Of a stretch of 64,000 bases of DNA, positions 16,556 through 37,614 are shown one piece after another. A program made the translations under genes and the position numbers. The notes beneath the pieces were generated by a model that searched no databases, was not told the DNA's origin, and saw only the letters and a list, made by a program, of their open reading frames with translations. Source of the DNA: Clostridium pasteurianum DSM 525 = ATCC 6013 (GTDB taxonomy: Bacteria; Bacillota; Clostridia; Clostridiales; Clostridiaceae); contig NZ_CP009268.1 in assembly GCF_000807255.1 (NCBI RefSeq), forward strand, positions 186,001 through 250,000, written 5' to 3'. The stretch's first letter is position 1. Each line of letters starts with the position of its first letter.

Positions 16556-16594
16556 TTATTAATATGGAATAATTGAAAAGTTAATTTGATATAA

Positions 16595-16822
16595 AGGCTT
16601 TGATCAGGAAGAGTACTTAATTTTTATACTTAAAGAGAGTGGGAGTTGCTGTGAGCCCATAGTAGATACTTAGGGAAAATCACCTGTGAGCTGAGGACTG
16701 AAATTGAAAGTAAGTCTGTCCGTGTTATACGTTAAAATATAGGGTATGATTGTACCTGAATTTTACTATTTAGGTGGTATAGCGAATTAACTTCGTCCTA
16801 TTGCGGATGAAGTTTTTTTATT
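16595..16822 (+). promoter_or_regulatory. T-box riboswitch controlling ileS
   Basis: The leader contains aggaagagta (stem I base), agagagtgggag (distal stem I), the specifier gaaaATCacc with ATC (Ile) at 16679-16681, the variant T-box taggtggtatagcga at 16771-16785, and a terminator (aacttcgtcc/ggatgaagtt plus a T-run) ending near 16820. Uncharged tRNA(Ile) would stabilise the antiterminator and switch on ileS. Confidence 0.93.
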
Positions 16823-22721: not shown

Positions 22722-23651
22722 TTATATATAAGTATTTTCTACAGTTGATTTTGGAGTATAAAACTTCCATATAAAAATAAAGATTATAATAATTACTAAG
22801 GTAACTGTAAGTCCACCTTCAGGGCCAAAGCTGCCGCCATTTATTATATTGGAAGAAGTATTTCTAACAGTATATATTCCATTAGTCTCATTACCACTTA
22901 CAAGAAATCCAAATACATTACCCTCAAAATAATTCCAGGTTGTATGAAAGCCTATGGACATCCACAAATTTTTTGATTTGATAGCCATATACAGAGCTAA
23001 AAGGGCAAATAAGAATAGATTTACATAGCCCAGAAAACTGATTCCAGCATTAAAGGAGTGCATAGCGGCAAATATAATGGATGATACCACAATTGCTATC
23101 CACTTGTTAGTGGATTGTCTGAGCACTGTAAAGCAGTAACCTCTTGCAAACATTTCTTCATTTATACCAACAAAAATAAATAATATAAGTCCTGTTAAAG
23201 CAGATATACTAAAATTGGGGCTATAGAAAGAACCTATAAGCTTTATATTTCCAGTTGCGTACAATATAAAAAATACTAAGGTTAAAGCTACTCCTCCAAA
23301 GATTAATCCCAGTATAAGATCTCTGGAACCACGTCTTATATTAATTAAGCCAATATTCTTTATAGGTTTTTTATCGAACTTTTTCCAAAATATAAATATA
23401 CTGATTATCATACAAATACATTGAGATAGCGTAGATATAAAGATTATAAACGAATTGAAATTTACGGTATTAATAATCTTATTGGGATTACTCATTAAAC
23501 TTGGATTTGATAAAAATTTGGACAGGGCATAGACAGTTCCAATAACTATTTGGGTTAACAGTGTTAAGGCAAAGAAAACCATAAATACAATAGTTATTTT
23601 CCAGCCTGACCTTAGCTTGAAGTCTTTGTCCATAAAAATGTTTTTCAGCAT
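22722..23651 (-). CDS. CPBP-family intramembrane protease, possible immunity protein
   Basis: This 309-residue protein has about eight hydrophobic segments and the CPBP motifs NEEMFARGY (about residue 163), FAAMHSFNAG (about residue 195) and GFHTTWNYFEG (about residue 236). In lactic acid bacteria, members of this family (for example PlnI- and SkkI-like proteins) confer self-immunity to bacteriocins and are encoded in bacteriocin loci. Here it is the outermost gene of the peptide island, on the same strand as the short helical protein at 23766, which suggests but does not prove a similar role. AGGAGGTT lies upstream of the ATG. Confidence 0.8.
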   Translation of the reverse strand: MLKNIFMDKDFKLRSGWKITIVFMVFFALTLLTQIVIGTVYALSKFLSNPSLMSNPNKIINTVNFNSFIIFISTLSQCICMIISIFIFWKKFDKKPIKNIGLINIRRGSRDLILGLIFGGVALTLVFFILYATGNIKLIGSFYSPNFSISALTGLILFIFVGINEEMFARGYCFTVLRQSTNKWIAIVVSSIIFAAMHSFNAGISFLGYVNLFLFALLALYMAIKSKNLWMSIGFHTTWNYFEGNVFGFLVSGNETNGIYTVRNTSSNIINGGSFGPEGGLTVTLVIIIIFIFIWKFYTPKSTVENTYI

Positions 23652-23765
23652 AGGGGCAAAACCTCCTGTAAATAAATTTTAGGTTTTAACTTATTGTATC
23701 AAAAAGATAGTACGAATTAAATACATATTGAGTAAAAATATGGTTTATGTATTTAATATAAATTA

Positions 23766-24047
23766 CTATCCCAGCCAAGTTATTAGTTGGCGTACTGCAG
23801 ACAATAAATCTTTCTTATTTTTTTCCATATCTTTTTCAGGTCCAGTAAACTTTAAATTGCTTATATTTTCCTTTATTTTACTTAACAAGTCAGCATCGCC
23901 ATTATGATTAGTGTTATCAATTTTGTTGATGATGTTTTCTAAATCTTTTTTGTTATAGGTGGATATATAACGAGGTTTTTTTATTTCTAGATAAATTTTA
24001 TTTAATATTTTTTTATATTCGTCAAAATTATTATTTGTATTAGTCAT
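23766..24047 (-). CDS. Short helical protein, paralog of the 24919 gene; immunity candidate
   Basis: This 93-residue protein is charged, lacks a signal peptide and looks all-helical. Its last ~40 residues align with the 48-residue product at 24919-25065, with about 16 identities, including the shared GPEK motif and a C-terminal TWLG. Size and helical character recall bacteriocin immunity proteins of the enterocin A type, but no specific match is claimed. AAGGAAG precedes the ATG. The operator-like sequence at 24231-24276 lies upstream in its orientation, so it is probably co-regulated with the exporter. Confidence 0.65.
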   Translation of the reverse strand: MTNTNNNFDEYKKILNKIYLEIKKPRYISTYNKKDLENIINKIDNTNHNGDADLLSKIKENISNLKFTGPEKDMEKNKKDLLSAVRQLITWLG

Positions 24048-24396
24048 TTTAACACTTCCTTAATAAAAATTTGCAATTGAAATATTATATAAGAGATCCA
24101 ATATTTATATGTTTGTTAAAATTAATTATTAGATTTATGCACTATTAATTTTAAATATATGTATATATTGTAAATTAAAAACTTTTAGATGTAAATAGGT
24201 TTATAAGTAAACATGAAAATTTTAACATAAAAAGTTTTTAATGCCCTAAAATCGATGTTTAGTGTCCAAAGTATTTCAATTTAGAATTTTTCAATTTAGA
24301 ATATAGATGTATTCAAAATTACTAAAGGAATAAAGGTAATGGTGTAGTTGGAATAAAATAATATCTTTGAAAAATTAATATTTTGGAGGAAGAGTT
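24048..24396. other. Divergent promoter region of the peptide island (349 bp)
   Basis: This gap separates the minus-strand helical protein gene from the plus-strand 61-residue gene. It holds the operator-like element at 24231-24276 and A/T-rich promoter-like sequence on both sides. No further reading frame is convincing. Confidence 0.6.
24231..24276 (-). promoter_or_regulatory. Putative LytTR-type operator, inverted copy
   Basis: Read on the minus strand, this 46-bp sequence matches 25445-25490 at about 40 of 46 positions. It contains TTTGGACACTAAA and, 21 bp later, a more diverged second box before ATTAAAAACTTT. Direct repeats with one 21-bp period are the hallmark of LytTR regulator sites, and a LytTR regulator is encoded at 32626. 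It points toward the gene at 23766. Confidence 0.6.
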
Positions 24397-24582
24397 ATGA
24401 CAAATAAAGAAAAAAAGTCTATAAAAAATGTAGGGATTTTTTATGGTACTGCATTAGGTATAATTTTTGGTGTTGTATTTAAAAATGTTGTTTGGGGAAT
24501 TATTATTGGTGCTGGCATTGGGGGTATAATAGATATTATATATAATTCAAATGGAGATAAAATAAATAAAAGTGATAAATAA
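24397..24582 (+). CDS. 61-residue glycine-rich membrane protein
   Basis: A polar, lysine-rich start (MTNKEKKSIKN) is followed by two hydrophobic segments (about residues 12-27 and 32-48) rich in glycine (GTALGIIFGVV, GIIIGAGIGGII), then a polar tail. There is no double-glycine leader. GGAGGAAG lies before the ATG, and a palindrome at about 24594-24616 may end the transcript. Given its position in the divergent promoter region opposite an immunity-like gene, it could be an immunity protein or a leaderless membrane-active peptide. I do not recognise a family. Confidence 0.6.
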   Translation: MTNKEKKSIKNVGIFYGTALGIIFGVVFKNVVWGIIIGAGIGGIIDIIYNSNGDKINKSDK

Positions 24583-24918
24583 TATTTTTGAGTTGAAATA
24601 TAAATTTTATATTTCTTAAACAATGACAATAAGCCATTTATAGTTATTAATATTTATTTATGAAATTGGATATCTATATTAATATCTAAACTTTCGCACA
24701 TTAAAATAAAAGCATAAGCCTAAATTTTTAATATATAAAGCAAAGAAACATCCCGTAGGTGGATTTTTTATCGATGAGGTGATGAACTTCAAGATATTGA
24801 ATTTTATCAAGCACTACAAATACTTATGACTACTTTAAAAATAGTTTTTCTCTTGTGAAAGTTAATACTACGAATATTATAATGCACTTTATGTGTATTT
24901 TTTAATGTTAAATTTTAA
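24583..24918. other. 336-bp intergenic stretch with a possible gene remnant
   Basis: A palindrome (gaaatataaa/ttttatatttc) near 24594-24616 may terminate the 24397 gene. At about 24705-24830 the + strand has an open frame of about 42 codons without a start codon (it includes KKHPVGGFFIDEVMNFKIL). It may be a decayed gene. I could not identify it. Confidence 0.4.
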
Positions 24919-25065
24919 TTAGCTTCCTAACCATGTTAATAACTCCAACAATAATTTCATTATATCTCTTTTTATTATTTTAGGATTTTTTTCAGGTCCT
25001 TCAATTTCCAAACTTTTTAAATCAGTCTTTAATTTATTAATTATATTTTTTGTGAAATTTCTCAT
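24919..25065 (-). CDS. 48-residue helical protein, short paralog of the 23766 product
   Basis: This small gene is supported by AAGAGGTG before its ATG and by similarity to the C-terminal half of the 93-residue protein at 23766 (shared K-x-K spacing, GPEK and TWLG). The product is basic and amphipathic, with LLLELLTWLGS at the end and no leader. It follows the GG-leader peptide gene at 25163 on the same strand, about 100 bp downstream, past a terminator hairpin. It may be a cognate immunity factor, a truncated duplicate, or a leaderless bacteriocin. Confidence 0.6.
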   Translation of the reverse strand: MRNFTKNIINKLKTDLKSLEIEGPEKNPKIIKRDIMKLLLELLTWLGS

Positions 25066-25121
25066 ATTAAACACCTCTTATTTAATATATAATATAAATT
25101 CATTATATTATACACATAATT

Positions 25122-25157
25122 AATAAGAAAAAAGAGTCTTTTAGACTCTTTTTTCCT
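25122..25157. terminator. Terminator after the GG-leader peptide gene
   Basis: The arms aaaaaagagtc and gactctttttt pair around a short loop and carry T-runs in both directions. The hairpin lies directly after the stop codon of the minus-strand peptide gene, so only readthrough would reach the 24919 gene. Confidence 0.8.
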
Positions 25158-25162
25158 ATTTT

Positions 25163-25336
25163 TTATACATATCCAGTGTTGTAATAATCTAACATATACT
25201 TAGGTATAGAAGTATTGCCATATGTGAATACTCTACTAAAATATAGATTTGCCACTAAACTTCCAGCTTTAACGGCAGTTGAAAGTCTATTACCACCATC
25301 AATTTTTTCTAGTTGATCCATAGTTAATTCATTCAT
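25163..25336 (-). CDS. Double-glycine leader bacteriocin-like precursor (57 aa)
   Basis: The 57-codon gene begins 7 bases after GGAGGG. Its product starts with the leader MNELTMDQLEKIDGG, a canonical C39-peptidase substrate with hydrophobic residues at the -4, -7 and -12 type positions. Cleavage after GG would release a core of about 42 residues. The core begins NRLSTAVKAGSLVANL and has no cysteine or tryptophan but several tyrosines near the end (YMLDYYNTGYV). That fits an unmodified class II bacteriocin more than a lantibiotic or sactipeptide. The gene is divergent from the C39 exporter and shares the LytTR-like operator region at 25445-25503. Confidence 0.8.
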   Translation of the reverse strand: MNELTMDQLEKIDGGNRLSTAVKAGSLVANLYFSRVFTYGNTSIPKYMLDYYNTGYV

Positions 25337-25379
25337 TTTAATCCCTCCAAATAAATTTAATCTTTATGTACTAAAGTGG

Positions 25380-25396
25380 ATTATGAAATTCATAAT
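25380..25396. promoter_or_regulatory. Perfect 17-bp palindrome in the divergent promoter region
   Basis: The sequence attatgaa-a-ttcataat is a perfect palindrome between the bacteriocin-like gene and the LytTR-like boxes. It may be a second operator or an mRNA 5' hairpin of the minus-strand gene. Confidence 0.4.
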
Positions 25397-25444
25397 AACT
25401 AATCTTGAGCACATTCACATTGTAAATTAAAAATTTTTAAATTT

Positions 25445-25503
25445 AAATACTTTTGACACTAAACATGGATGTTTTGACATTAAAAACTTTTTGTGTCAAA
25501 AAA
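25445..25503 (+). promoter_or_regulatory. Putative LytTR-type operator of the peptide island
   Basis: TTTTGACACTAAA (25451-25463) and TTTTGACATTAAA (25472-25484) are direct repeats with a 21-bp period. A third box in the opposite orientation (gtgtcaaaa, 25493-25501) makes an inverted pair with the second. The element lies between the divergent precursor gene and the C39 exporter and has an inverted copy at 24231-24276. The spacing fits a dimeric LytTR response regulator; the regulator at 32626 is the obvious candidate. Confidence 0.7.
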
Positions 25504-25603
25504 TAGGGATTTCATGCCTAATCTATTTAATTTTTTTAGATTTATGCTAATAATAAATTTAGATTAAATACACTAAAGTTGAAATAATAGGAGGCTATAA
25601 AAT

Positions 25604-27834
25604 TTGAAAAACCTATTTAAAAAATATATTTGCATTAAACAGCATGACGCAAAAGATTGTGGCTGCGCTTGCTTAGCTACAATTTTTAAACAATATGGTT
25701 TAAAAATATCAATATCTAAAATAAGAGAAACTGCGGGAACAGATAGGCAGGGAACCAGTGCTTATGGGATTATTAAAGCAGCAGAAAAAATTGGATTTAC
25801 TGCTAAAGGAGTTAAGGTAAATAAGTCAGAGGATATATTTAGTGAATTTCCAATCCCTGCTATTGCTCATGTCATTATAGATAAAAAATTTCCTCACTAT
25901 GTAGTAATACATAGAATACATAAAAAAGAAATTGTTGTAGCAGATCCTGAAAAGGGTATTGTTAAATATAAACCAGAAGATTTCTTTAAAATTTGGACAG
26001 GAATATTGATATTAATGACACCCACTGTTGAATTTAAGAAAGGTAATGAAGATAAGGGAGTATTTAAAAGATTTTTTGGATTGTTAAAACCACAAAAAGG
26101 ATTGCTTACAAATATATTTTTTGCTTCCTTGGTACTTACTACCCTTGGTATATTAGCTTCTTTTTATTTTCAATCGCTCATGGATACCATAATACCACAA
26201 AATTTATCTAAAACATTAATAGAAATTTCTATAGGTGTTATTTGTCTAAATGTATTCAAAGTACTATTGGATGCTTTTAGAACTCAGCTTCTCATATATT
26301 TAGGGCAGAATATAAATATACCATTAATGATTGGATATTATAATCATGTAGTAAATCTTCCTATGAACTTTTTTGGTACAAGAGAAGTAGGAGAAATTAT
26401 CTCAAGATTTAATGATGCTTCAAAGATAAGAGATGCTATTTCAGGGGCAACTCTTACTATTATGATAGATACGTTAATGGTTATCTTTGGTGGAGCTATA
26501 CTTTATACTGAAAATCATTTACTGTTTGGGATCACAATAGTTCCTGTAATTTTATATTTAATTATAGTCTGGGTTTTTAATAGTTCTATTGAAAGAGTTA
26601 ATAAAAAAACAATGGAAGACAATGCAAGTCTTACATCTTATCTAGTGGAATCCCTAAATGGTATAGAGACAGTTAAAGCTTTTAATGGTGAAAGAAAAGT
26701 TAACTTTGAAATGGAAAAGAGATTTATAAAGCTAATAAAAAGTGTATTTAATAATGGATTTATAAGTAATATTCAAGGCTCTGTAAAAACAGCAGTACAA
26801 ACTATTTTTGGTACGATAATTCTTTGGATAGGAGCTTATGAAGTGTTAAGAGGAAATATGACTATAGGTCAGCTTTTGACTTTTAATGCACTGCTTGCAT
26901 ATTTTTTAGATCCTATTCAGCGTATTATAAATCTTCAGCCAACTGTTCAAACCGCCATAGTTGCTGCAGACAGATTAGGTGAAATATTGGATTTAGAGCT
27001 TGAAAAAAGTGAAAATGAGGATAAAAAAATATTTCCTTCAACTTTAAAGGGAGAGATTGAATTAAAAAATGTAGATTTTAGATATGGTACAAGGCAATTG
27101 GTGCTAAAAGATATAAATATAAGTATAGCACCTGGTGAGAAAATAGCACTAGTAGGAGAAAGTGGTTCTGGTAAAACTACTATTTCAAAACTGCTTATGA
27201 ATTTTTATCAATGTGAAAATGGAGAAGTTTTAATCAATGGCTATAATATTAAAGATATTAATATTGAAGCCTTAAGGGATAAGATAGCTTACATATCACA
27301 AAATGTATTTTTCTTTAGCGGTACTATAAAGGAAAACTTGAGTTTTGGAGCTGAGGGAACTACTTTTGAAGAGATGATAGAGGCATGTAAAAAGTCACAA
27401 ATAAATGACTATATTAATTCACTGCCTACAAGATATAATACTTTGTTGGAGGAAAATGCATCTAACCTTTCAGGCGGTCAAAAGCAAAGACTCGCCATAG
27501 CAAGAGCAATACTCAAAAAGCCAGAAATACTTATAATGGATGAGGCCACAAGTAATTTGGATTCTATAACAGAAAAAGCTATTGAAAACACAATAAATGA
27601 ATTCAGTAAGGATATCACTTCACTACTATCATAATAGCACATAGATTAAGTACTATTATGAGATGCGATAAAATATATGTTATGGATAAGGGTATAATTA
27701 TTGAGAGTGGAAGTCATAATGAACTTATAAAACAAGGAGGAAAATATTTTAAACTTTGGAAAGAACAGCTTCCGGGTTATGAAGCACTAGAAGAAGTAGC
27801 ATCAGCTAAAAGACTGGAGGTAAATCAAATATGA
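25604..27834 (+). pseudogene. C39-peptidase ABC exporter for GG-leader peptides, frameshifted near the 3' end
   Basis: The protein cleaves double-glycine leaders and exports the mature peptides. Residues 1-140 are a C39 peptidase with the QHDAKDCG motif (catalytic Cys19), His98 (PHYVVI) and Asp114 (ADPEKG). About residues 165-430 form the membrane domain, followed by an ATPase with Walker A GESGSGKTT (about 517), signature LSGGQKQR (about 622) and Walker B ILIMDEATSN (about 643). The first frame stops at 27634, just after DITS. The missing part, including the H-loop [10 protein letters not shown], continues in another frame from about 27625 to TGA 27832-27834, which overlaps the next ATG. One lost base (or two gained) near 27620-27627 explains this. 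The start is TTG after TAGGAGG. The frameshift may be real or a sequence error. Confidence 0.85.
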
Positions 27835-29354
27835 AATACATACTTCAAAATATAGATGATATAACTGACAGTAGAGAAGTATTAGAATCAAGACCTCATC
27901 CCTTTACAAGAATTTTTATTTACATAATGATAGCTGTGCTGTTATTAGCATTTATATGGTCTTATTTTAGTGAAAAGGAAATTGTAGTAAAAGCTAATGG
28001 GATAGTGGAACCTAACAAAGCAATTATACAAGTATCAAATGAAGCTGCTGGAAAAGTAACTTCTATAAATTTTAAAGATGGTGATAAGGTAAAGAAAGAT
28101 CAGATACTTTATACAATTAATCATACAAATTTAGATGTACAAAAAGCTGGACTGGAAGAGGATCTTAAGCTTCAAAATGTGGAGGTAAACAATTTAAATA
28201 AATTAAAGAATAGTATTACAGATGGGAAAAATCATTTTAATGAAAATTCGAATGATGAAAGGGAATATTATAATAGATACGTTAGATATACAGAAGGTAT
28301 TGGAGATATAAATAATAGTGCACAGGCTGTCAAGGTTCAAATTCAGAATTTGCAGGATCAGATATTAAAATTAAATTTACTACAAAAATCAATAAATGAT
28401 AACAAAAATTATTTTGGAGATAACAGTTCTTATAGTAATCAACTTCAAAGTTATCAGATTAATATCCAGCAGTATCAGGGAAAAATAAATAATGCACTAA
28501 ATCAATACAATGCACTTAAAAAGCAGATATATGAACAAAAAAAACAAACTTCGTCACAAAATATGCAAAATAGTAGTCAAATAGATCAAAATAATGAAAT
28601 AAGTGAAATTAATAATAAAAGTCAACTAGATAACGCCAAAATAGCTATAGATAGTGCAAATCAAGATTTATCAAAATATAAATTAGAATTTATGCAAAAT
28701 ATAAATTCTAGTAAAGAACAAAATGAAATAAAAATAAAGGAAATTCAGAGTGCACCATCCTTAAGTCAGGAAAATGGAAGCCAATATACATCTTCTGAGG
28801 AGTATAAGCATGATAATTTAATTCAAATAGATACAAATATTAAAGCAGCTCAATCTAAGATAAACCAAGATAATAACAATATTAAAAGTATTGATATAAA
28901 TATAGCTCAATGTACTGTAAAGGCTCCCAGTGATGGGATAATAAATAGTTTAAATGAAATTAAAGAGGGAGATTTACTGCAAGCAGGAACACAAATAGCT
29001 ACTATGCTTCCTATAGATAACTCTCAATATAAAATTCAAATATATATTGCCAATAAGGATATAGGAAATATAAAAAAGGGACAAAACATACGCTGTAATT
29101 TTGACGCATTACCTTACAGCGATTATGGAAGTATAGATACAAAAATAACTAATTTAAGTGCAGATGCAAAGGTAAATCAAAATAATAGTACAAGCTATTA
29201 TACTGCAGAAGCGATTATATATAATAAGCCTTTATACAATAGAAAAAGAGAAAAAGCTGATATTAAACCAGGAATGACAAGTCAAATAGATATAATTACT
29301 AGAAAAGAAAAAATACTTTATTATTTGATGAAACAGATAAATCTTAAAGATTGA
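27831..29354 (+). CDS. HlyD-family membrane fusion protein, bacteriocin secretion accessory
   Basis: This 507-residue protein has one N-terminal membrane segment (about residues 29-46, [15 protein letters not shown]). A biotinyl-lipoyl-like half ([27 protein letters not shown], about 63-90), a long Q/N-rich coiled-coil region (about 100-355) and the second half-motif ([14 protein letters not shown], about 362) follow. Such adaptors work with C39 exporters (LcnD/BlpB-like). GGAGG lies before the ATG, which overlaps the TGA of the exporter's restored frame, an arrangement typical of translational coupling. Confidence 0.88.
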
Positions 29355-29385
29355 TATTGTAAAAATTTACAATTATTTTGCTATA

Positions 29386-29405
29386 ACCTTTCGGCCGAAG
29401 GTTAA
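29386..29405 (+). promoter_or_regulatory. G/C-rich hairpin before the radical SAM precursor gene
   Basis: The sequence aacctttcggccgaaggtt folds into a compact stem in a very A/T-rich setting, without a T-run behind it. It lies between the HlyD gene and the precursor gene at 29434 and could stabilise the 5' end of a processed precursor mRNA. Confidence 0.45.
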
Positions 29406-29433
29406 TATATAAATTAATTTTGGAGGGAATATT

Positions 29434-29628
29434 ATGATAAATGAAAATTTAACAGATGAACAATTACTAAATATAACAGGAGGAAGTGCTTTTTTGGACA
29501 ATGATAGCTTAACTAATGGATTAAATTCCATACACATACGCCCATTATATAGCATTACTCCAATAAAATCACCTTTTGGTGGCATAATTGCTTTATATGC
29601 AGTTCAACCAGTTATTACAGACAAATAA
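29434..29628 (+). CDS. Double-glycine leader precursor next to a radical SAM enzyme (64 aa)
   Basis: The product starts with the leader MINENLTDEQLLNITGG, which aligns with the leaders at 25163 and 31123. The core of about 47 residues contains no cysteine and no tryptophan, so it is not a sactipeptide, ranthipeptide or streptide type. It holds two related blocks, PLYSITPIKS and ALYAVQPVIT, of the form LY-small-aliphatic-x-P-aliphatic. TGGAGG precedes the ATG. A hairpin at 29632-29664 separates it from the radical SAM gene and may keep precursor levels above enzyme levels. It is probably a RiPP precursor; the modification is unknown. Confidence 0.78.
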   Translation: MINENLTDEQLLNITGGSAFLDNDSLTNGLNSIHIRPLYSITPIKSPFGGIIALYAVQPVITDK

Positions 29629-29631
29629 TAT

Positions 29632-29664
29632 AAAAGGAAATGACCTGAAAAGTCATTTCCTTTT
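29632..29664 (+). terminator. Hairpin between precursor and radical SAM gene, attenuator-like
   Basis: The perfect arms aaaaggaaatgac and gtcatttcctttt pair around ctgaaaa. No long T-run follows beyond the stem itself, so partial termination is likely. Such hairpins commonly lower the enzyme-to-precursor ratio in peptide operons. Confidence 0.7.
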
Positions 29665-29712
29665 ATAAAATACTAAATAAAATTTTCAATGAAATAATAG
29701 GGGGAAATACAT

Positions 29713-30765
29713 ATGGAATATAAACCAGTTACTGCTGTATGGGAAATAACTATGGGATGTAACATGAGGTGTAAACATTGTGGTTCCAGCTGTGAAAAGC
29801 CATTAGAAGACGAGTTGAGCACTGAAGAAGCTTTTAAATTAAGTGATGACTTAGGAAAGCTTGGACTTAAATGGATTACTCTATCTGGTGGAGAACCTAC
29901 TACAAGAAAAGATTTTTATTTGATTGCAAAGAGATTAAATGAAAATAATATAATTCCAACTTTAATCACTAATGGATGGCTATTAGATGAAAACATAGTT
30001 GATAAGGCAATAATAGGTGGAATTAACACTATTGCTATTAGTATTGATGGATTAGAAAAAACTCATGACAATATGAGAAAAAAAGGATCTTTTCAAAGAG
30101 ATATGAAGGCGTTAGATTTATTAGGAAGAAAGAATATACCTTCTTCTGTTATTACTACAATAAACAATATAAATATAAAAGAATTAGAGCAATTAAAGGA
30201 TATTTTAATTGAAAAAGGTGTAGTGTCATGGCAGCTTCAATTAGCCCTTCCTATGGGAAATATGTCTAAAAACTCAGATCTTGTTGTACAACCGTTTCAA
30301 GTAGATAAAGTAATAGATTTTGCTTATAGAACAACAATGGAAAATAAAATAGTTATACAATTAGCGGATTGTATGGGATATTTTAATATGAAAGAAGCGT
30401 CAGTTAGAAAACATAGTTCAAATATTGATGGATATACATGGACTGGATGCAGTGCAGGTAAATATACTTTAGGAATTTTAAATAATGGAGATATTGTAGG
30501 TTGTACCTCTGTGCGTGATAAAACTCTTGTAGAGGGAAATATAAGAACAGCTTCTTTGGAAGATATATGGGAAAATCCTGATAATTTTAGCTGGAATAGA
30601 GGTATGAAAAAAGAAAAGTTGCAGGGGACTTGTGGTAAATGTAAATATGGAAATATATGTTTAGGAGGATGTTCTAATACTAAGCTTACTCATGGAGGAA
30701 GCTTGTATGCTGAAAACAAATATTGCTCTTATAATTTTGCTTTAAGTAAGGCAAAAAATTCATAG
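29713..30765 (+). CDS. Radical SAM/SPASM peptide-modifying enzyme
   Basis: This 350-residue enzyme has the radical SAM motif CNMRCKHC (Cys16, Cys20, Cys23) and the LSGGEPT segment (about residue 58). A C-terminal SPASM-type cysteine set follows: CSAGKYTLGI (about 245), GCTSVRD (about 262), GTCGKCKYGNICLGGC (about 310-325) and YCSYN (about 342). This layout is typical of enzymes that modify ribosomal peptides using extra iron-sulfur clusters. The adjacent GG-leader precursor is the likely substrate. No RRE-like N-terminal extension is present, so leader recognition may involve the small TPR protein that follows. GGGGG lies before the ATG. Confidence 0.88.
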   Translation: MEYKPVTAVWEITMGCNMRCKHCGSSCEKPLEDELSTEEAFKLSDDLGKLGLKWITLSGGEPTTRKDFYLIAKRLNENNIIPTLITNGWLLDENIVDKAIIGGINTIAISIDGLEKTHDNMRKKGSFQRDMKALDLLGRKNIPSSVITTINNINIKELEQLKDILIEKGVVSWQLQLALPMGNMSKNSDLVVQPFQVDKVIDFAYRTTMENKIVIQLADCMGYFNMKEASVRKHSSNIDGYTWTGCSAGKYTLGILNNGDIVGCTSVRDKTLVEGNIRTASLEDIWENPDNFSWNRGMKKEKLQGTCGKCKYGNICLGGCSNTKLTHGGSLYAENKYCSYNFALSKAKNS

Positions 30766-30776
30766 AAAGTGGGAAT

Positions 30777-30965
30777 TTGCAACTTGGAGAAATGGCATTA
30801 TCAAGAGCTTTTGATATGGGCAGTAAAGATGAAGAAATGTTAGAAGCATATGCATATGCAAATTACATGCTAGAAAATTATACCTATGCAAAAAATGCTT
30901 ATGAAAAATTATTATCTATTAATCCTGAGAACAAAAACGCACAAAGATTTTATAACTTAATTTAA
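30777..30965 (+). CDS. Small TPR-repeat protein beside the radical SAM gene
   Basis: This 62-residue protein consists of about one and a half tetratricopeptide repeats (AYAYANYMLENYTYAKNAYEKLLSINPENKNAQ). The start is TTG at 30777, 11 bases after the radical SAM stop, with AAAGTGGG just upstream. TPR units bind other proteins, so it may help the enzyme recognise its peptide. Because the start codon is weak and the protein is short, it could also be a decayed larger gene. Confidence 0.6.
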   Translation: MQLGEMALSRAFDMGSKDEEMLEAYAYANYMLENYTYAKNAYEKLLSINPENKNAQRFYNLI

Positions 30966-31122
30966 TAAAATTACAGTAATTTTATAGAATATAAAAATTT
31001 TTCATGTACAGAAATTTATATTTAATGACCAATGTGTTTACGTATATTATATTTTAATATATGATTTTAATAAAAAATGATACAAATCAATATTTATATA
31101 AAAGAATGAGGAGAGGTTATGT

Positions 31123-31251
31123 ATGGAAGAAACTAAGGAGTTTAATGAATTAGAAGAGTTAACAGATGAAGAATTATCAGATATAGATGGTGGAGGTATT
31201 TATGATAAAATAAATAAATTTTTATCTAATTCTAAACATTATTTTATTTGA
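31123..31251 (+). CDS. Double-glycine leader peptide, putative pheromone (42 aa)
   Basis: The gene starts 7-8 bases after GAGGAGAGG. The acidic leader ends in EELTDEELSDIDGG and aligns with the other two GG leaders of the island. The released core, GIYDKINKFLSNSKHYFI (18 residues), is short, amphipathic and net positive, as are ComC/PlnA-type inducing peptides. It sits directly beside the AgrC-like kinase and LytTR regulator genes, whose relatives sense such peptides. The role as inducer is inferred from size and position; a small bacteriocin is the alternative. It is too short to show in most gene predictions. Confidence 0.75.
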   Translation: MEETKEFNELEELTDEELSDIDGGGIYDKINKFLSNSKHYFI

Positions 31252-31253
31252 TG

Positions 31254-31287
31254 TATATACCTAGGTAATTTGTTACCTAGGTATATA
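31254..31287. terminator. Bidirectional terminator between pheromone and kinase genes
   Basis: The perfect 15-bp arms tatatacctaggtaa and ttacctaggtatata enclose the loop tttg. The kinase stop codon lies inside the right arm. The two genes converge here. Confidence 0.85.
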
Positions 31288-32562
31288 TAAAGAAATTTTT
31301 ATCCAACCATCATCTACATTTAGTTGAATTCTACCATTATAGAATTCAACTATCTTTTTTACATTATATAAACCATAACCATGATTAACACTTTTCTTTG
31401 TAGTAAAGCCTTTATTAAATATCTTGGCTACTTTATTTGGATCTAAAACTAAACCGTTATTTTCAGTTTCTATTAAATAATCTGTAGTAGAAGAGTCAAT
31501 TTTTAATTTAACAGTTCTATTATTATAGGCTTCATTTTTAACAGCTTTAAAGGAATTGTCCAAAAGATTATTTAATATTTCTGACAGTTCATAATCCTGC
31601 AGTGGAATATCATTTAAACTGCAATCAATGTTGTAGATGAAATTTATATTTTCAGTTTTTGCAATGTTGGTTTTTACGTATATAATAGCAGCTACAACTT
31701 TATGATCTATACTTATATTTTCATCTAATACTGTTAATGACTTATTCAAGGAAGTTATGTAGTTTTCTAATTGATATTTTAAATCTTTTTCATTTGTAGT
31801 TTGAATAATACCATATATAGTATTTATATGATTTTTAAAATCATGCTGTCTTGATTTTATGTCATCTATTAAGTCAGAAACAATAGGACTATATTTTTCA
31901 TAAGTTTTTAAAGTCATGCCTTGTTCTTTCAATTTGTAATTATAAATAGCAAATAATATACTTATAAAAAAATATATTATTGAAATGATGGATAATTGTA
32001 TAGAATAATTGCTTATAATATTAAAATTAAAAATTAATAGTAATTTTAGTATAACTATATAAAATATTATGTTAAATATTATAAAATTACCCGATTTTAG
32101 CATCTTTTTATATCCAATGTAGTATATCTTTAATGGTAATAGATAGCATATAACAATTATAGTTATTAGAAGGCTTAGTTCAGCCAGAAAATTTATATGA
32201 TAACTGCTTATTTTAAATTTAAATTGTATTAGCTCTATGAGTAAATTAAATATAAACTTTATAATGAAATCCAAACATTGAATTACTAGAAAATATTGAA
32301 TAGATTCTGAAATAGTTTCATTATATATAAATTTTAACATTAATATTATAAATATACAATTAATAAATATACTCACCTGTAAATTTATCAACCGCAAAAC
32401 AATTACTTCGGTGCTTACAATTATTATAAATAAAATATCCCTTATTGGCATGAATTTATTGTTGCTTAAAGTTTTATATAATATTGTAATGGCTGTATAT
32501 TCTAGCAATGGAATACTTACAAATATCAGCAGTAAAATAACATGATTCACATTAAATGTCAC
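31273..32562 (-). CDS. AgrC-like (HPK10) sensor histidine kinase
   Basis: This 429-residue protein has an N-terminal sensor of about six to seven membrane segments (residues 5-208). The kinase follows: the phosphorylation site RQHDFKNH (His240), the N box EILNNLLDNSFKA (about 328-340) and a G box NHGYGLYNVK (about 393-402). Multi-spanning HPK10 kinases of this type sense extracellular peptide pheromones. The LytTR regulator gene lies just upstream on the same strand (about 60 bp), and the candidate pheromone gene is convergent at its 3' end. No agrB/agrD pair is present, so a GG-leader pheromone is more likely than a cyclic thiolactone. Confidence 0.9.
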   Translation of the reverse strand: MTFNVNHVILLLIFVSIPLLEYTAITILYKTLSNNKFMPIRDILFIIIVSTEVIVLRLINLQVSIFINCIFIILMLKFIYNETISESIQYFLVIQCLDFIIKFIFNLLIELIQFKFKISSYHINFLAELSLLITIIVICYLLPLKIYYIGYKKMLKSGNFIIFNIIFYIVILKLLLIFNFNIISNYSIQLSIISIIYFFISILFAIYNYKLKEQGMTLKTYEKYSPIVSDLIDDIKSRQHDFKNHINTIYGIIQTTNEKDLKYQLENYITSLNKSLTVLDENISIDHKVVAAIIYVKTNIAKTENINFIYNIDCSLNDIPLQDYELSEILNNLLDNSFKAVKNEAYNNRTVKLKIDSSTTDYLIETENNGLVLDPNKVAKIFNKGFTTKKSVNHGYGLYNVKKIVEFYNGRIQLNVDDGWIKISLYIPR

Positions 32563-32625
32563 TTCCTTTCAATTTTATATTCGCCTTTAATGTATTATTA
32601 ATTTAGGCTTTATAATAATATATTA

Positions 32626-33384
32626 TCAATGCTTGTCTTTTTTGTTTTCTCTGCTATACATGTATTCATCAATAATATCTTTGTATTTTGAACCTATAAA
32701 AGCATTTTCTTTATAATCATAAAAAGATACTATCCATGAGTTGTATGAATATTTTTCTATTTTTTCTATACGTTTTAAATTCATCAAATAAGACCTATGA
32801 CATTGAACTATATAATCATTACATACTTTTTTCATAATATTTTTTAGTGAAGTTCTGTGTATTTCATATAAACCTTTTGTGGTATGTATAATTACATTTC
32901 TTATACGTACTTCTATAAAAAATATGTCTTCCAAATACACCTTTATGCTCAGTTTATTACAGTCAAATAGAACGTATTCTCTTGCTTTGATTTCTTTCTT
33001 ATGCTTTTTATTGATATCGTCTATAATCAGCATAGTCATATCCTTAACCTTTTGTTTATCATAAGGTTTTATTATGTAATCATAACAATGAATTTCTTTA
33101 AAAGCAGGTAGTATATATTGTTTATGGGTAGTTATAAAGACAATCCAGCTTAAACGATATCTATCTATATTTCTTAAGTTTAAACCTAGATTTAAACCAG
33201 AAGAATTTTTTAAAGAAATGTCAATATAGAAAAAATCTATAATTTCTGTATTGGCTATTTTTAAGGCTGAGGCTTCATCCTCTGCTTCGTATATATTTAT
33301 ATCTTTTATAATGATATTCTTTAACATTTTTATAAGATTATTTCTCTGAATAGGATTATCTTCTGCTATTAATATATTTGGCAT
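32626..33384 (-). CDS. LytTR-family response regulator
   Basis: The 252-residue protein has a receiver domain (acidic pocket E8/D9, phosphoacceptor Asp55 in YIDISL, Lys106 in IIKPYDK). A LytTR DNA-binding domain (about residues 140-245) follows, with the typical EVRIRNVIIHT and CHRSYLMNLKRIEKI segments. It forms a two-component pair with the kinase downstream. The 21-bp-spaced direct repeats at 25451-25484 and the inverted copy near 24250 are its probable targets. No such boxes were seen in its own promoter region, so autoinduction would have to come through the pheromone and exporter genes. Confidence 0.92.
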   Translation of the reverse strand: MPNILIAEDNPIQRNNLIKMLKNIIIKDINIYEAEDEASALKIANTEIIDFFYIDISLKNSSGLNLGLNLRNIDRYRLSWIVFITTHKQYILPAFKEIHCYDYIIKPYDKQKVKDMTMLIIDDINKKHKKEIKAREYVLFDCNKLSIKVYLEDIFFIEVRIRNVIIHTTKGLYEIHRTSLKNIMKKVCNDYIVQCHRSYLMNLKRIEKIEKYSYNSWIVSFYDYKENAFIGSKYKDIIDEYMYSRENKKDKH

Positions 33385-33561
33385 TGCTATACTCCTTTTA
33401 GTATATTCCCATATAGTTAATTTACGACAATAATTATACCAAATAGAACATACTATGTAAATTTTGAGGAAAATTTGTATGAAATTTTATTAAATATATT
33501 TAGAAAAATATGGTATAATAGTTCTTAGATGGTAATAGGAGAAACTTAAGAGGTGATAAAT

Positions 33562-36500
33562 ATGAATTGTAGGACAAAGATAAAAAATTTGTTTTCATAT
33601 CTATTGAGCATAAAGAACATGGACGAAGATGTAATAAGAAATATTAGTCAGTATGAAAAGATCTATTGGCAGAAAAATTTAAATGTGGTGGATAAAGAAG
33701 TTACAAGTGTGCAGGAAGAAGAGAATAATTGGTTTTACATAGATAGCAGCAGCAAAGACTTATATGATGAATTTTTTCAGTTATATCTCTCTTTGGATAA
33801 CAATGAAGAAAATTTTGAGATTGTTTGGGGAAACTATATACTTGCTTGGGAAATAGGGGATAAAAAAATTGTACATCCTCTTTTTTCCACTAAAATGGAG
33901 CTTTATTTTGATGCGGAAAGAGGAATTTTCTTTTTAAGACCCTATGATGGAAGAGTGAAGATGGAGTTTGATATCTTTGCTGGAATAGATATTCCAAATA
34001 TAGATAAACTTTTAGGGATAAAAGGGATTATAGAAAATTCTGTTGTAGATTTAAGAGATTTAAATAAAATGGAGAAGCTATTACTTAAAATAGCCCATTA
34101 TTTGAGTGCAGATATAAATCCAGAAGGTGAGTTCCAAAAGGATACAAGCATTGATAATATTAATTTATCAAAATATCCTGTATTCTATAATGCCCCTGGA
34201 ATTATAATAAGAAAAACTGATTCCAGACTTTGGCATAGTGAATTGACAAATATTATAAAATCAATAGATTATGGGTATAAAATTCCATCTACTATAGAAG
34301 CTCTTGTGTCTTCAGAAAAAATAGAGGAACCTTTAAAGGTAAAAGAACAGTGGAAGGAAATGGGCAGAAATCTTTTATTTCCACTTTCCAGTAATGAAGA
34401 ACAAAAGGAAATAGTAACAAAGTTATCTGAAAATTTTGGGGTGGTAGTTCAGGGACCTCCTGGTACGGGAAAAAGTCATACCATTGTAAATCTTATATGT
34501 CATCTCTTAGCCCATGGTAAAAGAGTTTTAGTTACAAGTCAAACGGGGAGGGCACTTAAAGTATTATCAAAAAATATTCCTAAGGGAATAAGGCCCCTTT
34601 GCATGAGTATTCTTGGAGATGATACAAAGGCACTTAAGGAACTGGATGATTCTGTAAGAATAATAACAGAAAACCTTTCTATGGATAAAGACAGTATAAG
34701 AAAAGAAAGTATACCTCTTAAAAAACAATTGGATAGCTGTAAGAGCAGACAAAAGGAGTTATATGATAAATTAAAAGAAGCTGAATGTATTGAAAACAAA
34801 AAATTGAAATTTCAGGGGACTATAAGTCAATTAATGGATATAGCAAAATGGGTAAGATTAAATGAAAGAAAATATTCATGGATAGAAGATGATATAAAAA
34901 TTGAAAATAATTGTCCTTTAACGGAGCAGCAGTATTTTCGATTGGTACATCTTTTGAATACTATTGAAAGAGAAGATATAGTTAAGGTAAATAGTATGAT
35001 TAATGTATTATCTGAAATTCCAGATTTTGATGATATATGTGTAAAAATAAATAATTTTAAGGATATAGATGTAAATTATAAAGAATATAAAAATAATCTA
35101 AAAGATTGGTCACTGGGATATGATAACCGTGTAAATTACAAAGAACTTATAGGGGTTTTGACAAGAGCTGAAAAAAGTATGAAAAAAATAGAAGGCTCTT
35201 GGCTGAAAGAAGTTATGAGGTGCTATTATACCAGTGAAGTTATGAGACCTGTAATAAAACATATATATGTGAAGAGTAATTTTTTTATCACAGAACTTTC
35301 AGAATTACAGAGAAGACTTACTGTGCATAAGGTGGAGGTTCCTAAAATAGATAACTTTAATAAATTTAAGATGGATTTTCAATATATATATGATGTTATA
35401 AAAACTAGAGGTAAGATAACTAAAGTATTTAGAGTAATGCACAGTGAGTATGACTATATATTTAATAATTGTTTTGTAGATCTGCATCCCATAGTCTCCA
35501 GAGATGAAGCTGAAATATTAAACATATGTATAAAGAAGCTGGCTCTAGAGGAGGAATTTAAGAGCTTATGGAATGGTGCCATGAAAGATTATGGGGCATT
35601 TGAAATTAAAGTATTTAATGCTAATTCCATGATGGTTCTGGAGGAAAGTGTAAAGGGATTAGGCAGGGTTATTGACTGGAATATGGATTTCAAGAGTAAG
35701 ATTATAAATATACTTGGAGAAATAACTTTTTTAAATAAGATAAATTGGTATGAAGAGAAGACTTACACCTATCTTAAAAAAGGTATAATGAGTTTGAAAT
35801 ATATAAATGATTATAAAGAGCACAAGTCATATATAAACAATATAAAAAAACTTTGCAATAGTTCATTTGAACTGCGAAAACTTGGAGATGCCATTGAAAA
35901 AATGGATATAGAAGCCATTGAAGAAAGTTATACAGAAGTGGCAAGGCTGAAAAAATTGTACAAGGATATCCAGGAGATAAATTTATATATGGAAAAGCTT
36001 CGAAAGTTAGTTCCTATGTTTGCTATAAAGCTTTATGAAAGTAAGGAAAGAAATAAATTTAAAGATTTAAGCATGGCTTGGAAATGGAGACAATATAATA
36101 GTATGCTGGAAAAAGTTCATAAAGTAAGGCCGGAACTCATAGAAAGATTATTGTCAGAAGAGAAGAATAAGGAAAAAATTTTAATAGAAGAGTTGGTAGC
36201 TAAAAAGTCCTGGTACAATCAGATAAACAATACTACTGATATTCAAAGAAGAAGCCTTTATGCTTGGCTTCAGGCAATGAAAAAAATAGGAAGAGGAAAG
36301 GGAAAGTTTGCAGATAAATATAGAAGTATAGCCCAAAGGGAAATGGAAATATGTAAAGATTGCATACCTGTGTGGATTATGCCTTTAAACAAGGTTATTG
36401 AAAATATAAAATTGAATAATACTCCTTTTGATGTGATAATATTTGATGAAAGCAGTCAAAGTGATATATTTTCTATTTGTGCATTATTTAGAGCTAAAAG

Positions 36501-37614
36501 GGCTGTAATTGTAGGAGATGATAATCAGATAAGTCCTCAGGCTATAGGCATAGATCAGGAAACAGTAAACGGCTTGATAGATAGATATTTAAAGGGTATA
36601 CCCCATAGAGAGTGGTTTGATTTGGAAACCAGCCTTTATAACACAGCTCTTAGAGTTTTTCCTGATAGGCTTTTGTTAAAAGAACATTTTAGATGTCTGC
36701 CTGAAATAATAGGTTTCAGTAATTCTCTATGTTATTCTGGAGAAATAGTTCCCTTAAGGCATCCTAAGAAAGGGGAAGTATTCAATTCTCCAATAAAGGC
36801 TATAAGGGTAATGGATGGACTAAAAGATAAATTGAAAAATATAAATATAAATGAGGCTAAAGCTTTAGCAGAACAAATATTTAAATGTTGTAATGATAGA
36901 AGATATGATGGTATGACTATGGGAGTTGTATCATTACTGGGAGATGCTCAGGCAGAAATAATTGAAAACATGATAAGAGAAAAGATTGGAGAAAAAGAAA
37001 TTATGAAAAGAAAGCTTTTGTGCGGAGATGCTTATTCTTTTCAAGGAGATGAAAGAGATATAATATTTTTGTCCATGGTAGTAGGGGACAATGTAAGATT
37101 TACAGCACTGACCAGGGAGGTGGATATAAGAAGATTCAATGTGGCGGTAAGCAGGGCAAGAAATCAACTTTGGTTATTTTATTCTATAAGTACAGAAAAC
37201 TTAAATCCAGATTGTGTAAGAACAAAACTTTTAAGATATTGTCTAGATCCTTATGGATTAGAAGGTAATAAAAATGAGACACAGTATATGTTTGAAAGTG
37301 ATTTTCACAAAGAAGTATTTAGAATGATAAGTAAAAGAGGATACAGTATAACAACAGATGCAAGCCTTAAACATTACAAGGTTGACTTTGTGGTAGAGGA
37401 TAATAATAGTAGAGTTGCTATAGAGTGTGATGATGGACAATGGAATGGAATTGAAGAGTGGGAAACAGGTCATGAAAGTCAAATGACATTAGAGAGAGTG
37501 GGATGGACTTTTCATAAGATAAGAGCCAGTGAGTTCTATAGAAATCCTGAAAAGACTATGGAACGTCTATGGTCCAGGCTGAAACATCTTGGAATTAAGA
37601 AGATAATAGCTTAA
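33562..37614 (+). CDS. Large SF1 helicase with C-terminal nuclease-like domain
   Basis: This protein of about 1350 residues is a Dna2/UPF1-like superfamily 1 helicase. Its ATPase motifs are GPPGTGKSHT (about residue 297), FDVIIFDESSQSD (about 955), GDDNQISPQ (about 990), EHFRCLPEI (about 1040), SFQGDERDII (about 1158) and NVAVSRAR (about 1192). A long insertion of mostly helical sequence separates motif I from motif II. The last ~110 residues (DFVVEDNN then AIECDDGQW) look like a Vsr/DUF559-type PD-(D/E)XK nuclease. ATG 33562 is preferred to GTG 33553 because AGAGGTG is its ribosome binding site. The helicase-nuclease architecture occurs in phage-defence proteins, but housekeeping repair is possible. 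No partner gene is evident. Confidence 0.82.
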   Translation: MNCRTKIKNLFSYLLSIKNMDEDVIRNISQYEKIYWQKNLNVVDKEVTSVQEEENNWFYIDSSSKDLYDEFFQLYLSLDNNEENFEIVWGNYILAWEIGDKKIVHPLFSTKMELYFDAERGIFFLRPYDGRVKMEFDIFAGIDIPNIDKLLGIKGIIENSVVDLRDLNKMEKLLLKIAHYLSADINPEGEFQKDTSIDNINLSKYPVFYNAPGIIIRKTDSRLWHSELTNIIKSIDYGYKIPSTIEALVSSEKIEEPLKVKEQWKEMGRNLLFPLSSNEEQKEIVTKLSENFGVVVQGPPGTGKSHTIVNLICHLLAHGKRVLVTSQTGRALKVLSKNIPKGIRPLCMSILGDDTKALKELDDSVRIITENLSMDKDSIRKESIPLKKQLDSCKSRQKELYDKLKEAECIENKKLKFQGTISQLMDIAKWVRLNERKYSWIEDDIKIENNCPLTEQQYFRLVHLLNTIEREDIVKVNSMINVLSEIPDFDDICVKINNFKDIDVNYKEYKNNLKDWSLGYDNRVNYKELIGVLTRAEKSMKKIEGSWLKEVMRCYYTSEVMRPVIKHIYVKSNFFITELSELQRRLTVHKVEVPKIDNFNKFKMDFQYIYDVIKTRGKITKVFRVMHSEYDYIFNNCFVDLHPIVSRDEAEILNICIKKLALEEEFKSLWNGAMKDYGAFEIKVFNANSMMVLEESVKGLGRVIDWNMDFKSKIINILGEITFLNKINWYEEKTYTYLKKGIMSLKYINDYKEHKSYINNIKKLCNSSFELRKLGDAIEKMDIEAIEESYTEVARLKKLYKDIQEINLYMEKLRKLVPMFAIKLYESKERNKFKDLSMAWKWRQYNSMLEKVHKVRPELIERLLSEEKNKEKILIEELVAKKSWYNQINNTTDIQRRSLYAWLQAMKKIGRGKGKFADKYRSIAQREMEICKDCIPVWIMPLNKVIENIKLNNTPFDVIIFDESSQSDIFSICALFRAKRAVIVGDDNQISPQAIGIDQETVNGLIDRYLKGIPHREWFDLETSLYNTALRVFPDRLLLKEHFRCLPEIIGFSNSLCYSGEIVPLRHPKKGEVFNSPIKAIRVMDGLKDKLKNININEAKALAEQIFKCCNDRRYDGMTMGVVSLLGDAQAEIIENMIREKIGEKEIMKRKLLCGDAYSFQGDERDIIFLSMVVGDNVRFTALTREVDIRRFNVAVSRARNQLWLFYSISTENLNPDCVRTKLLRYCLDPYGLEGNKNETQYMFESDFHKEVFRMISKRGYSITTDASLKHYKVDFVVEDNNSRVAIECDDGQWNGIEEWETGHESQMTLERVGWTFHKIRASEFYRNPEKTMERLWSRLKHLGIKKIIA

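What the first reader, a model, noticed from the sequence alone, without database searches (positions are those of the whole stretch)
22722..33384. Quorum-regulated peptide island with mixed bacteriocin and radical SAM parts
Seen: one 11-kb stretch holds a C39 exporter, an HlyD adaptor, three GG-leader genes, a radical SAM/SPASM enzyme, a small TPR protein, immunity-like proteins, a CPBP protein and a kinase/LytTR pair. Known: C39 exporters, CPBP proteins and HPK10/LytTR systems occur in class II bacteriocin loci of lactic acid bacteria. The combination with a Cys-free radical SAM precursor is, to my knowledge, not a described class, and it is the best candidate here for a new system.
Basis: partly seen in the sequence, partly recalled or inferred. 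Interest (0 to 1): 0.75.

Follow-up and report, generated by a model that had tools for sequence, protein, structure and literature searches.

The report
Damaged clostridial peptide-splicing-like gene island
A probably quorum-controlled gene island in a Clostridium-family bacterium carries a secreted-peptide system whose enzyme most likely cuts pieces of tyrosine out of the peptide backbone; unbroken relatives of the enzyme and its peptide occur in several bacterial phyla, while the copy here is partly broken.

Summary
The listed genes are present at 22722-33384, with two corrections: the C39 exporter frame is interrupted near 27634, and the "small TPR protein" is the broken-off tail of the radical SAM gene. 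Of the rSAM's best 80 relatives (287 found), 71 are 474-515 aa, the size of rSAM/SPASM-TPR fusions. In 51 of 80 loci a same-strand ORF within 4 kb carries three or more Tyr-Gly sites near proline (PLYGI, KYGIP); controls gave 2 and 0 of 80. PlpX excises tyramine at such XYG sites; its family (TIGR04103, mapping recalled) is the best NCBIfam model but far below cut-off (218 against 725 bits). The window precursor (IRPLYSITPI...IALYAVQPV) has variant sites; LYSI recurs in L044, LYAVQP in Orenia L062. I read this as a GG-leader, C39-exported, pheromone/LytTR-controlled, spliceotide-like system with a TPR-fused maturase. The rSAM domain keeps 74 of 74 conserved columns, but the genome's only C39 gene is broken and a congener keeps just a scar of the island. 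Spliceotides are in print (Scott 2022, not readable here); the TPR-fused, GG-leader form looks like a variant.

The parts
22722..23651 (-). CPBP/Rce1-like membrane protease, likely immunity or processing (inferred)
   Evidence: PF02517 68 bits; 53% identical protein in L035, whose locus also has the intact system; 67% in G148 at the same site
23766..24047 (-). 93-aa immunity-like protein (inferred from context)
   Evidence: no family at its cut-off; a 74-aa relative in congener G148
24237..24266 (-). LytTR-type operator, 1 mismatch to GACAYTAAA-N12-GACAYTAAA
   Evidence: second best of 66 genome-wide matches at up to 3 mismatches
24397..24582 (+). 61-aa glycine-rich membrane peptide, function unknown
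   Evidence: only weak hits, none at cut-off
24919..25074 (-). 51-aa protein resembling the C-terminal part of the 93-aa protein, perhaps a remnant
   Evidence: both match the same stretch in G148
25163..25336 (-). GG-leader peptide 1 (57 aa), bacteriocin-like
   Evidence: PF10439 E 0.0023, below cut-off; followed by a terminator-like hairpin 25160-25122
25455..25484 (+). LytTR-type operator (two GACAYTAAA half-sites, 21-bp start spacing)
   Evidence: the search pattern was derived from this site
25604..27634 (+). C39 peptidase/ABC exporter, main part; frame interrupted at its 3' end
   Evidence: TIGR01193 665 bits; PF03412, PF00664, PF00005; sole C39 match of the genome
27658..27834 (+). detached C-terminal part of the exporter, another frame
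   Evidence: 66% over 56 aa to the L053 exporter C-terminus
27831..29354 (+). HlyD-type adaptor
   Evidence: TIGR01843 168.5 bits, below cut-off; PF13437 over cut-off
29434..29628 (+). GG-leader, Cys-free precursor with core sites PLYSI and ALYAV
29713..30765 (+). radical SAM/SPASM maturase, splicease-like, without its fused TPR tail
   Evidence: PF04055, PF13186; TIGR04103 best, 218 bits; 74 of 74 conserved columns kept
30777..30965 (+). detached, shortened TPR piece of the maturase gene
   Evidence: 56% over 52 aa to the TPR part of the L053 fusion
31123..31251 (+). GG-leader peptide 3 (42 aa), probable pheromone
   Evidence: bacteriocin leader hits below cut-off; lies beside the kinase gene
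31273..32562 (-). GHKL sensor kinase (AgrC/ComD-like)
   Evidence: PF14501
32626..33384 (-). LytTR response regulator
   Evidence: PF04397, PF00072

Best explanation
The locus is (or recently was) a secreted-peptide system in which a quorum circuit (GG peptide 3, GHKL kinase, LytTR regulator acting at two operators) turns on the C39 exporter operon. A Cys-free GG-leader precursor is modified by a radical SAM/SPASM enzyme at Tyr sites of the form Xaa-Tyr-(Gly/Ala/Ser) beside Pro; [quoted passage not shown] The C39 exporter then cuts after GG and secretes the product, perhaps as a protease inhibitor or antimicrobial. In relatives the enzyme carries a C-terminal TPR superhelix that may hold the repetitive substrate in place of PlpY/RRE. 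In the window the rSAM domain is intact but the TPR tail and the exporter end are separated by frame changes, so product release is probably lost. Shown: gene content, rSAM-TPR fusion in relatives, motif association, operator-like repeats, interruptions, scar in a congener. Inferred: the chemistry, the TPR role, operator function, pheromone identity, product activity.
For: rSAM best NCBIfam model TIGR04103, the PlpX subclass IPR026482 (PMC11002830 passage; that TIGR04103 and IPR026482 are the same entry is recalled). A Nostoc TIGR04103 locus has a precursor ending GGRGSIALYGLPPELF. Motif association 51 of 80 against 2 of 80 and 0 of 80 within 4 kb; 45 of 80 against 0 of 26 other rSAM loci within 1.5 kb. 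Loci with an intact exporter, a GG precursor with PLYGI sites and full-length rSAM-TPR: L034/L054 and L035/L053, each pair one contig. LYAVQP also in L062, LYSI in L044. Window core IRPLYSITPI resembles the PlpA2-derived tags with PIRPLYGLPI tested in PMC10533398 (not every insertion was modified there). C39 export is used by some spliceotides (PMC10885120 passage). The two best genome-wide operator matches lie in the island (the first by construction). Fusion model of L053: pLDDT 93.4, pTM 0.87.
Against: No product data. TIGR04103 score far below cut-off and only 5 bits above TIGR03913. The tree puts the TPR clade beside, not inside, the Nostoc/Azospirillum group, on long branches with few outgroups. 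The window's own precursor has no Tyr-Gly. No PlpY-like gene was found in 91 related loci, by one weak test (single 71-aa query, E up to 1; window not included; no RRE model run). 29 of 80 loci did not reach three sites, and the 80 loci are not independent; the motif criterion was set after seeing the precursors. HlyD is found by homology in 5 of the 80 loci, CPBP in 1; kinase and regulator hits (7 and 9 of 91 loci) are at most 28% identical. The exporter frame break could be a sequencing error. One mostly-Cys column (at least 45 of 51 rows) is Ser in the window.
Confidence: 0.62

Rival explanations
1. The rSAM-TPR enzymes modify the same XY(G/A/S)P sites by different chemistry, for example Tyr cross-linking, beta-carbon oxidation or epimerisation.
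For: The enzyme is almost equally close to TIGR03913, whose chemistry I do not know; the tree separates the TPR clade from the PlpX-type sequence; Y+1 varies: G 83, A 7, S 5, D 2, N 1.
Against: The same LYG/MYG context as PlpXY substrates, and Tyr-Gly dominates.
Confidence: 0.25
2. This copy is a decaying pseudo-cluster: the chemistry was as in relatives but nothing is exported now (compatible with the best explanation).
For: Exporter interrupted and the only C39 match in the genome; maturase gene split with linker lost; TPR piece shortened; congener G148 keeps only CPBP and a 52-residue regulator remnant at this site; G146, G147 and G149 have the helicase gene right after ccpA.
Against: rSAM domain conserved; precursor sites match natural variants; other family enzymes also have short or no TPR (9 of 80 at 354-448 aa); one assembly only.
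Confidence: 0.6
3. An ordinary class II bacteriocin locus with an unrelated rSAM gene inserted.
For: C39, GG peptides, CPBP, GHKL/LytTR genes and a bacteriocin-like peptide; GG peptides 1 and 3 and the immunity-like proteins do not travel with the rSAM.
Against: Exporter, Tyr-motif precursor and rSAM-TPR occur together in distant genomes.
Confidence: 0.1

Closest known systems
Spliceotides / PlpXY splicease (IPR026482; TIGR04103 by recall)
   Same: rSAM/SPASM enzyme, small precursors, Xaa-Tyr-Gly sites beside Pro in relatives, several sites per precursor, some exported by C39 transporters
   Different: score below cut-off, TPR fused to the enzyme, no PlpY-like gene found in relatives (weak test), GG leader without Nif11/NHLP domain in the clostridial loci, window sites Tyr-Ser/Tyr-Ala
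GDL/DUF1843 peptide rSAM (TIGR03913)
   Same: rSAM score nearly equal; DUF1843 peptides carry N-terminal LYG, PYG, LYA, MYA or MYM
   Different: precursor type and site position, no TPR seen in the two proteins read
Class II bacteriocin loci with GHKL/LytTR control
   Same: C39 exporter, GG peptides, pheromone-like peptide, GHKL/LytTR pair, CPBP
   Different: radical SAM maturase and Tyr-motif precursor
Sactipeptides / ranthipeptides
   Same: rSAM/SPASM maturase in clostridia
   Different: core has no Cys

Membership tests
Spliceotide (PlpX type) | maturase of TIGR04103/IPR026482 above the curated cut-off | tested here: not met
   218 against 725 bits in the window, 213 in L053; still the best-scoring family
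Spliceotide (PlpX type) | XYG site in the precursor core | tested here: not met
   window sites LYSI and LYAV; met in relatives such as L053, L054 and L044
Spliceotide (PlpX type) | PlpY/RRE partner | tested here: inconclusive
   no hit to the Nostoc Y protein at E up to 1 in 91 related loci; one short query, window not searched, no RRE model run
Spliceotide (PlpX type) | alpha-keto-beta-amino product by tyramine loss | not testable with these tools
   needs mass spectrometry
Sactipeptide/ranthipeptide | Cys donors in the core | tested here: not met
   no Cys in 29434-29628
GDL/TIGR03913 | DUF1843-type precursors and model cut-off | tested here: not met
   213 against 592 bits; no Pfam family in the precursor
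Class II bacteriocin locus | intact C39 exporter, GG peptide, pheromone circuit | tested here: inconclusive
   genes present, exporter interrupted, peptide activity untested

The most novel reading that the evidence does not exclude
The rSAM-TPR clade is a separate lineage of backbone-splicing enzymes, spread over several phyla, in which the TPR superhelix replaces PlpY and lets the enzyme work along repeated XY(G/A/S) sites, making multi-ketoamide peptides and chagasin-repeat proteins that act as protease inhibitors; in clostridia it has been wired into a quorum-controlled C39 bacteriocin-type locus.
Probability: 0.35. Interest if true: 0.72.

Novelty: new variant of a known kind. Interest (0 to 1): 0.5.

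Why it matters
It ties an rSAM-TPR family without an NCBIfam model of its own, found in several phyla, to a precise Tyr-centred substrate motif, gives small GG-leader substrates for testing backbone splicing in Gram-positives, and shows such a system apparently being lost in one clostridial genus. Two of three large relatives tested join a chagasin-type inhibitor domain to many Tyr-Gly sites, which makes the protease-inhibitor idea directly testable.

Tried and rejected
Sactipeptide/ranthipeptide reading: rejected, no Cys in the core. Plain GDL/TIGR03913 system: rejected, no DUF1843 precursor and below cut-off. Ser/Ala at Y+1 as simple decay: weakened by such variants in L044, L053, L062, L092 and L111. 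A link between short TPR and loss of Tyr-Gly (window, L055, L085) was considered and dropped: L103, L122 and L127 have short tails and Tyr-Gly sites. The rest of the bacteriocin half: GG peptide 1 and the immunity-like proteins found no named family at cut-off. HK/RR are not specifically conserved with the clade. The motif count includes a few evident chance ORFs (for example L067, L126 and L122 at 459), kept in the totals; L079 is likewise doubtful. For the tree 43 of the 80 enzymes were used; for the structure alignment 51 of 80 plus the window, 52 rows.
Full report
WHAT IS THERE. Two corrections matter. The C39 exporter ORF (25604-27634) ends early; its last ~58 codons continue in another frame (27658-27834) and match the end of intact exporters (66% over 56 aa to L053). 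Twelve of the 80 loci have exporter hits above 500 bits, all with stop-to-stop frames of 718-782 aa. The 62-aa TPR ORF is the tail of the maturase gene: in L005, L006 and L008 both form one protein of 505-507 aa, in L007 and L009 a shorter one of 409 and 425 aa. In the window part of the linker is missing and the frames differ, so that break is more than a one-base reading error.

THE MATURASE FAMILY. Of 206 genomes of the window's family, 36 have some match at E up to 1e-30, but only 5 besides its own hold an orthologue (59-72% identity). The order search gave 6 of 225 at E up to 1e-45, its own included, and a phylum sample 5 of 398, its own included. The genome-contig scan found 287 relatives and kept the best 80; record titles name Firmicutes, Bacteroidota, Desulfobacterota, Fibrobacter, Spirochaetes and others, many of them metagenome-assembled (phylum names in part recalled from the organism names). 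Lengths from the match start: 71 of 80 are 474-515 aa, 9 are 354-448 aa. TPR was confirmed by Pfam in L053, and in a 52-row alignment nearly invariant columns extend to residue 466 of L053. An AlphaFold2 model of the L053 protein has pLDDT 93.4 and pTM 0.87, with a run of helices from about residue 357; the best PDB folds, by description rSAM enzymes, are PqqE, anSME, SkfB and SuiB. The window enzyme keeps 74 of 74 columns that are at least 95% conserved in the other 51 rows; one mostly-Cys column is Ser.

THE SUBSTRATE MOTIF. Same-strand ORFs with three or more Tyr-Gly near Pro lie within 4 kb in 51 of 80 loci; the same regions reversed gave 2 of 80 and the opposite strand 0 of 80. Within 1.5 kb the figures are 45 of 80 against 0 of 26 loci of other rSAM enzymes. 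The criterion was set after a first look, and related species are not independent. With Tyr-Gly or Tyr-Ala, 56 of 80 loci have such an ORF: 16 small GG-leader, 1 other small, 39 large. Two of three large ones tested carry a chagasin (I42) domain. Small GG-leader ORFs with at least one site: 43 in 32 of 81 loci, Y+1 being G 83, A 7, S 5, D 2, N 1, a few chance ORFs included. The window precursor has LYSI and LYAV; LYSI stands with LYGI and MYGV in L044, and LYAVQP recurs in Orenia L062, beside a full-length enzyme. PlpX excises tyramine at Xaa-Tyr-Gly (PMC11002830, PMC10533398 and PMC10373908, passages read). The Nostoc TIGR04103 locus, found with the window enzyme at 33% identity, has a precursor ending IALYGLPPELF and a 71-aa partner.

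PLACE IN THE FAMILY. TIGR04103 is the best NCBIfam model (218 bits, cut-off 725), TIGR03913 next at 213. All 23 members of A2, which include the Nostoc and Azospirillum enzymes, match both at E up to 1e-20. In a 66-row tree, with 43 of the 80 enzymes, the TPR clade has support 98/99; a Nostoc/Tropicibacter/Azospirillum/Aureibacter group has 100/100; two long rows (L040, L017) join at the same open fork. The window pairs with Clostridium hydrogenum at 100/88. Outgroups are few and branches long. I therefore call it splicease-like and do not file it under TIGR04103.

REST OF THE ISLAND. In 91 related loci the exporter has hits in 29, the precursor in 11, HlyD in 6, CPBP in 2, kinase in 7, regulator in 9 (the last two at most 28% identical), and GG peptides 1 and 3, both immunity-like proteins and the 61-aa peptide in none. 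L034/L054 and L035/L053 are the same contigs counted twice. So the conserved core is exporter, precursor and rSAM-TPR; the bacteriocin-like part is local.

CONTROL AND EXPORT. Two GACAYTAAA half-sites with 21-bp start spacing lie upstream of the exporter; a second copy with one mismatch lies at 24237-24266. They are the two best of 66 matches at up to three mismatches in the 4.35-Mb genome, while the backward pattern gave 109 matches, so weaker matches are background; the pattern was taken from the first site. The regions upstream of 24397 and 25604 align with score 134 against a maximum of 84 in 200 shuffles. GG peptide 3 beside the kinase is the likely pheromone (inference). The exporter is the only C39 match of the genome at E up to 0.001.

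LOSS. Congener G148 has ccpA, mobB, CPBP (67%), a 52-residue regulator remnant (67%) and the helicase gene at this site; G146, G147 and G149 have ccpA followed closely by the helicase gene. ccpA, mobB, CPBP and the helicase have like lengths in the window and G148. The remnant suggests that the island was present in the ancestor shared with G148 and is being lost; a sequencing error in the exporter alone is not excluded. The names ccpA and mobB are labels of mine: CcpA is the best NCBIfam match, below its cut-off, and mobB is recalled with no family hit.

IN PRINT. Scott et al. 2022 is not held. A review says it found splicing broadly across bacteria with protease-inhibiting products (PMC10373908 passage). 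Searches pairing spliceotide or splicease with TPR, Clostridium or chagasin listed no held paper that I could see describing this form (one search listed 10 of 11). The two held papers with all five terms mention TPR in other contexts. Two surveys seen in passages may touch relatives under other names: Bacteroidales RiPP clusters, some with TPR genes and no mention of splicing (PMC10352776), and rSAM loci of clostridia listed as sactipeptides (PMC4289311); I did not check their loci. Absence here covers open-licence papers only.

Noticed in passing
window 33553-37614: 1353-aa SF1 helicase with a C-terminal MTES_1575 nuclease domain, similar to but far below the cut-off of anti-phage ProA/Hhe.
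   Followed up: no
window 16591-16803: T-box leader upstream of an isoleucyl-tRNA synthetase-like gene (the gene name is recalled from its sequence).
   Followed up: no
window 60845-61372: A second radical SAM gene (about 463-aa open frame) in the same window, 32% identical to the maturase over 12-188.
   Followed up: no
L041, L043, L045: rSAM-TPR loci; L041 and L043 have Nif11-like GG precursors with AYGIARP or AYGVPIHG near the end; L043 and L045 also have a neighbour reading EEHHEAFFIW, which I recall as UPF0489/peptide arginase-like.
   Followed up: no
L067, L074 and other large precursors: Chagasin-type inhibitor domain (Pfam hit in L067 and L074, not in L096) joined to many KYG sites beside rSAM-TPR.
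   Followed up: partly
L134 and L135 DUF1843 peptides: GDL-system peptides also begin with LYG, PYG, MYM, LYA or MYA motifs, hinting that TIGR03913 enzymes act at the same kind of site.
   Followed up: no
L062: Orenia locus with six small GG-leader ORFs bearing one or two XY(G/A) sites around one rSAM-TPR gene.
   Followed up: no
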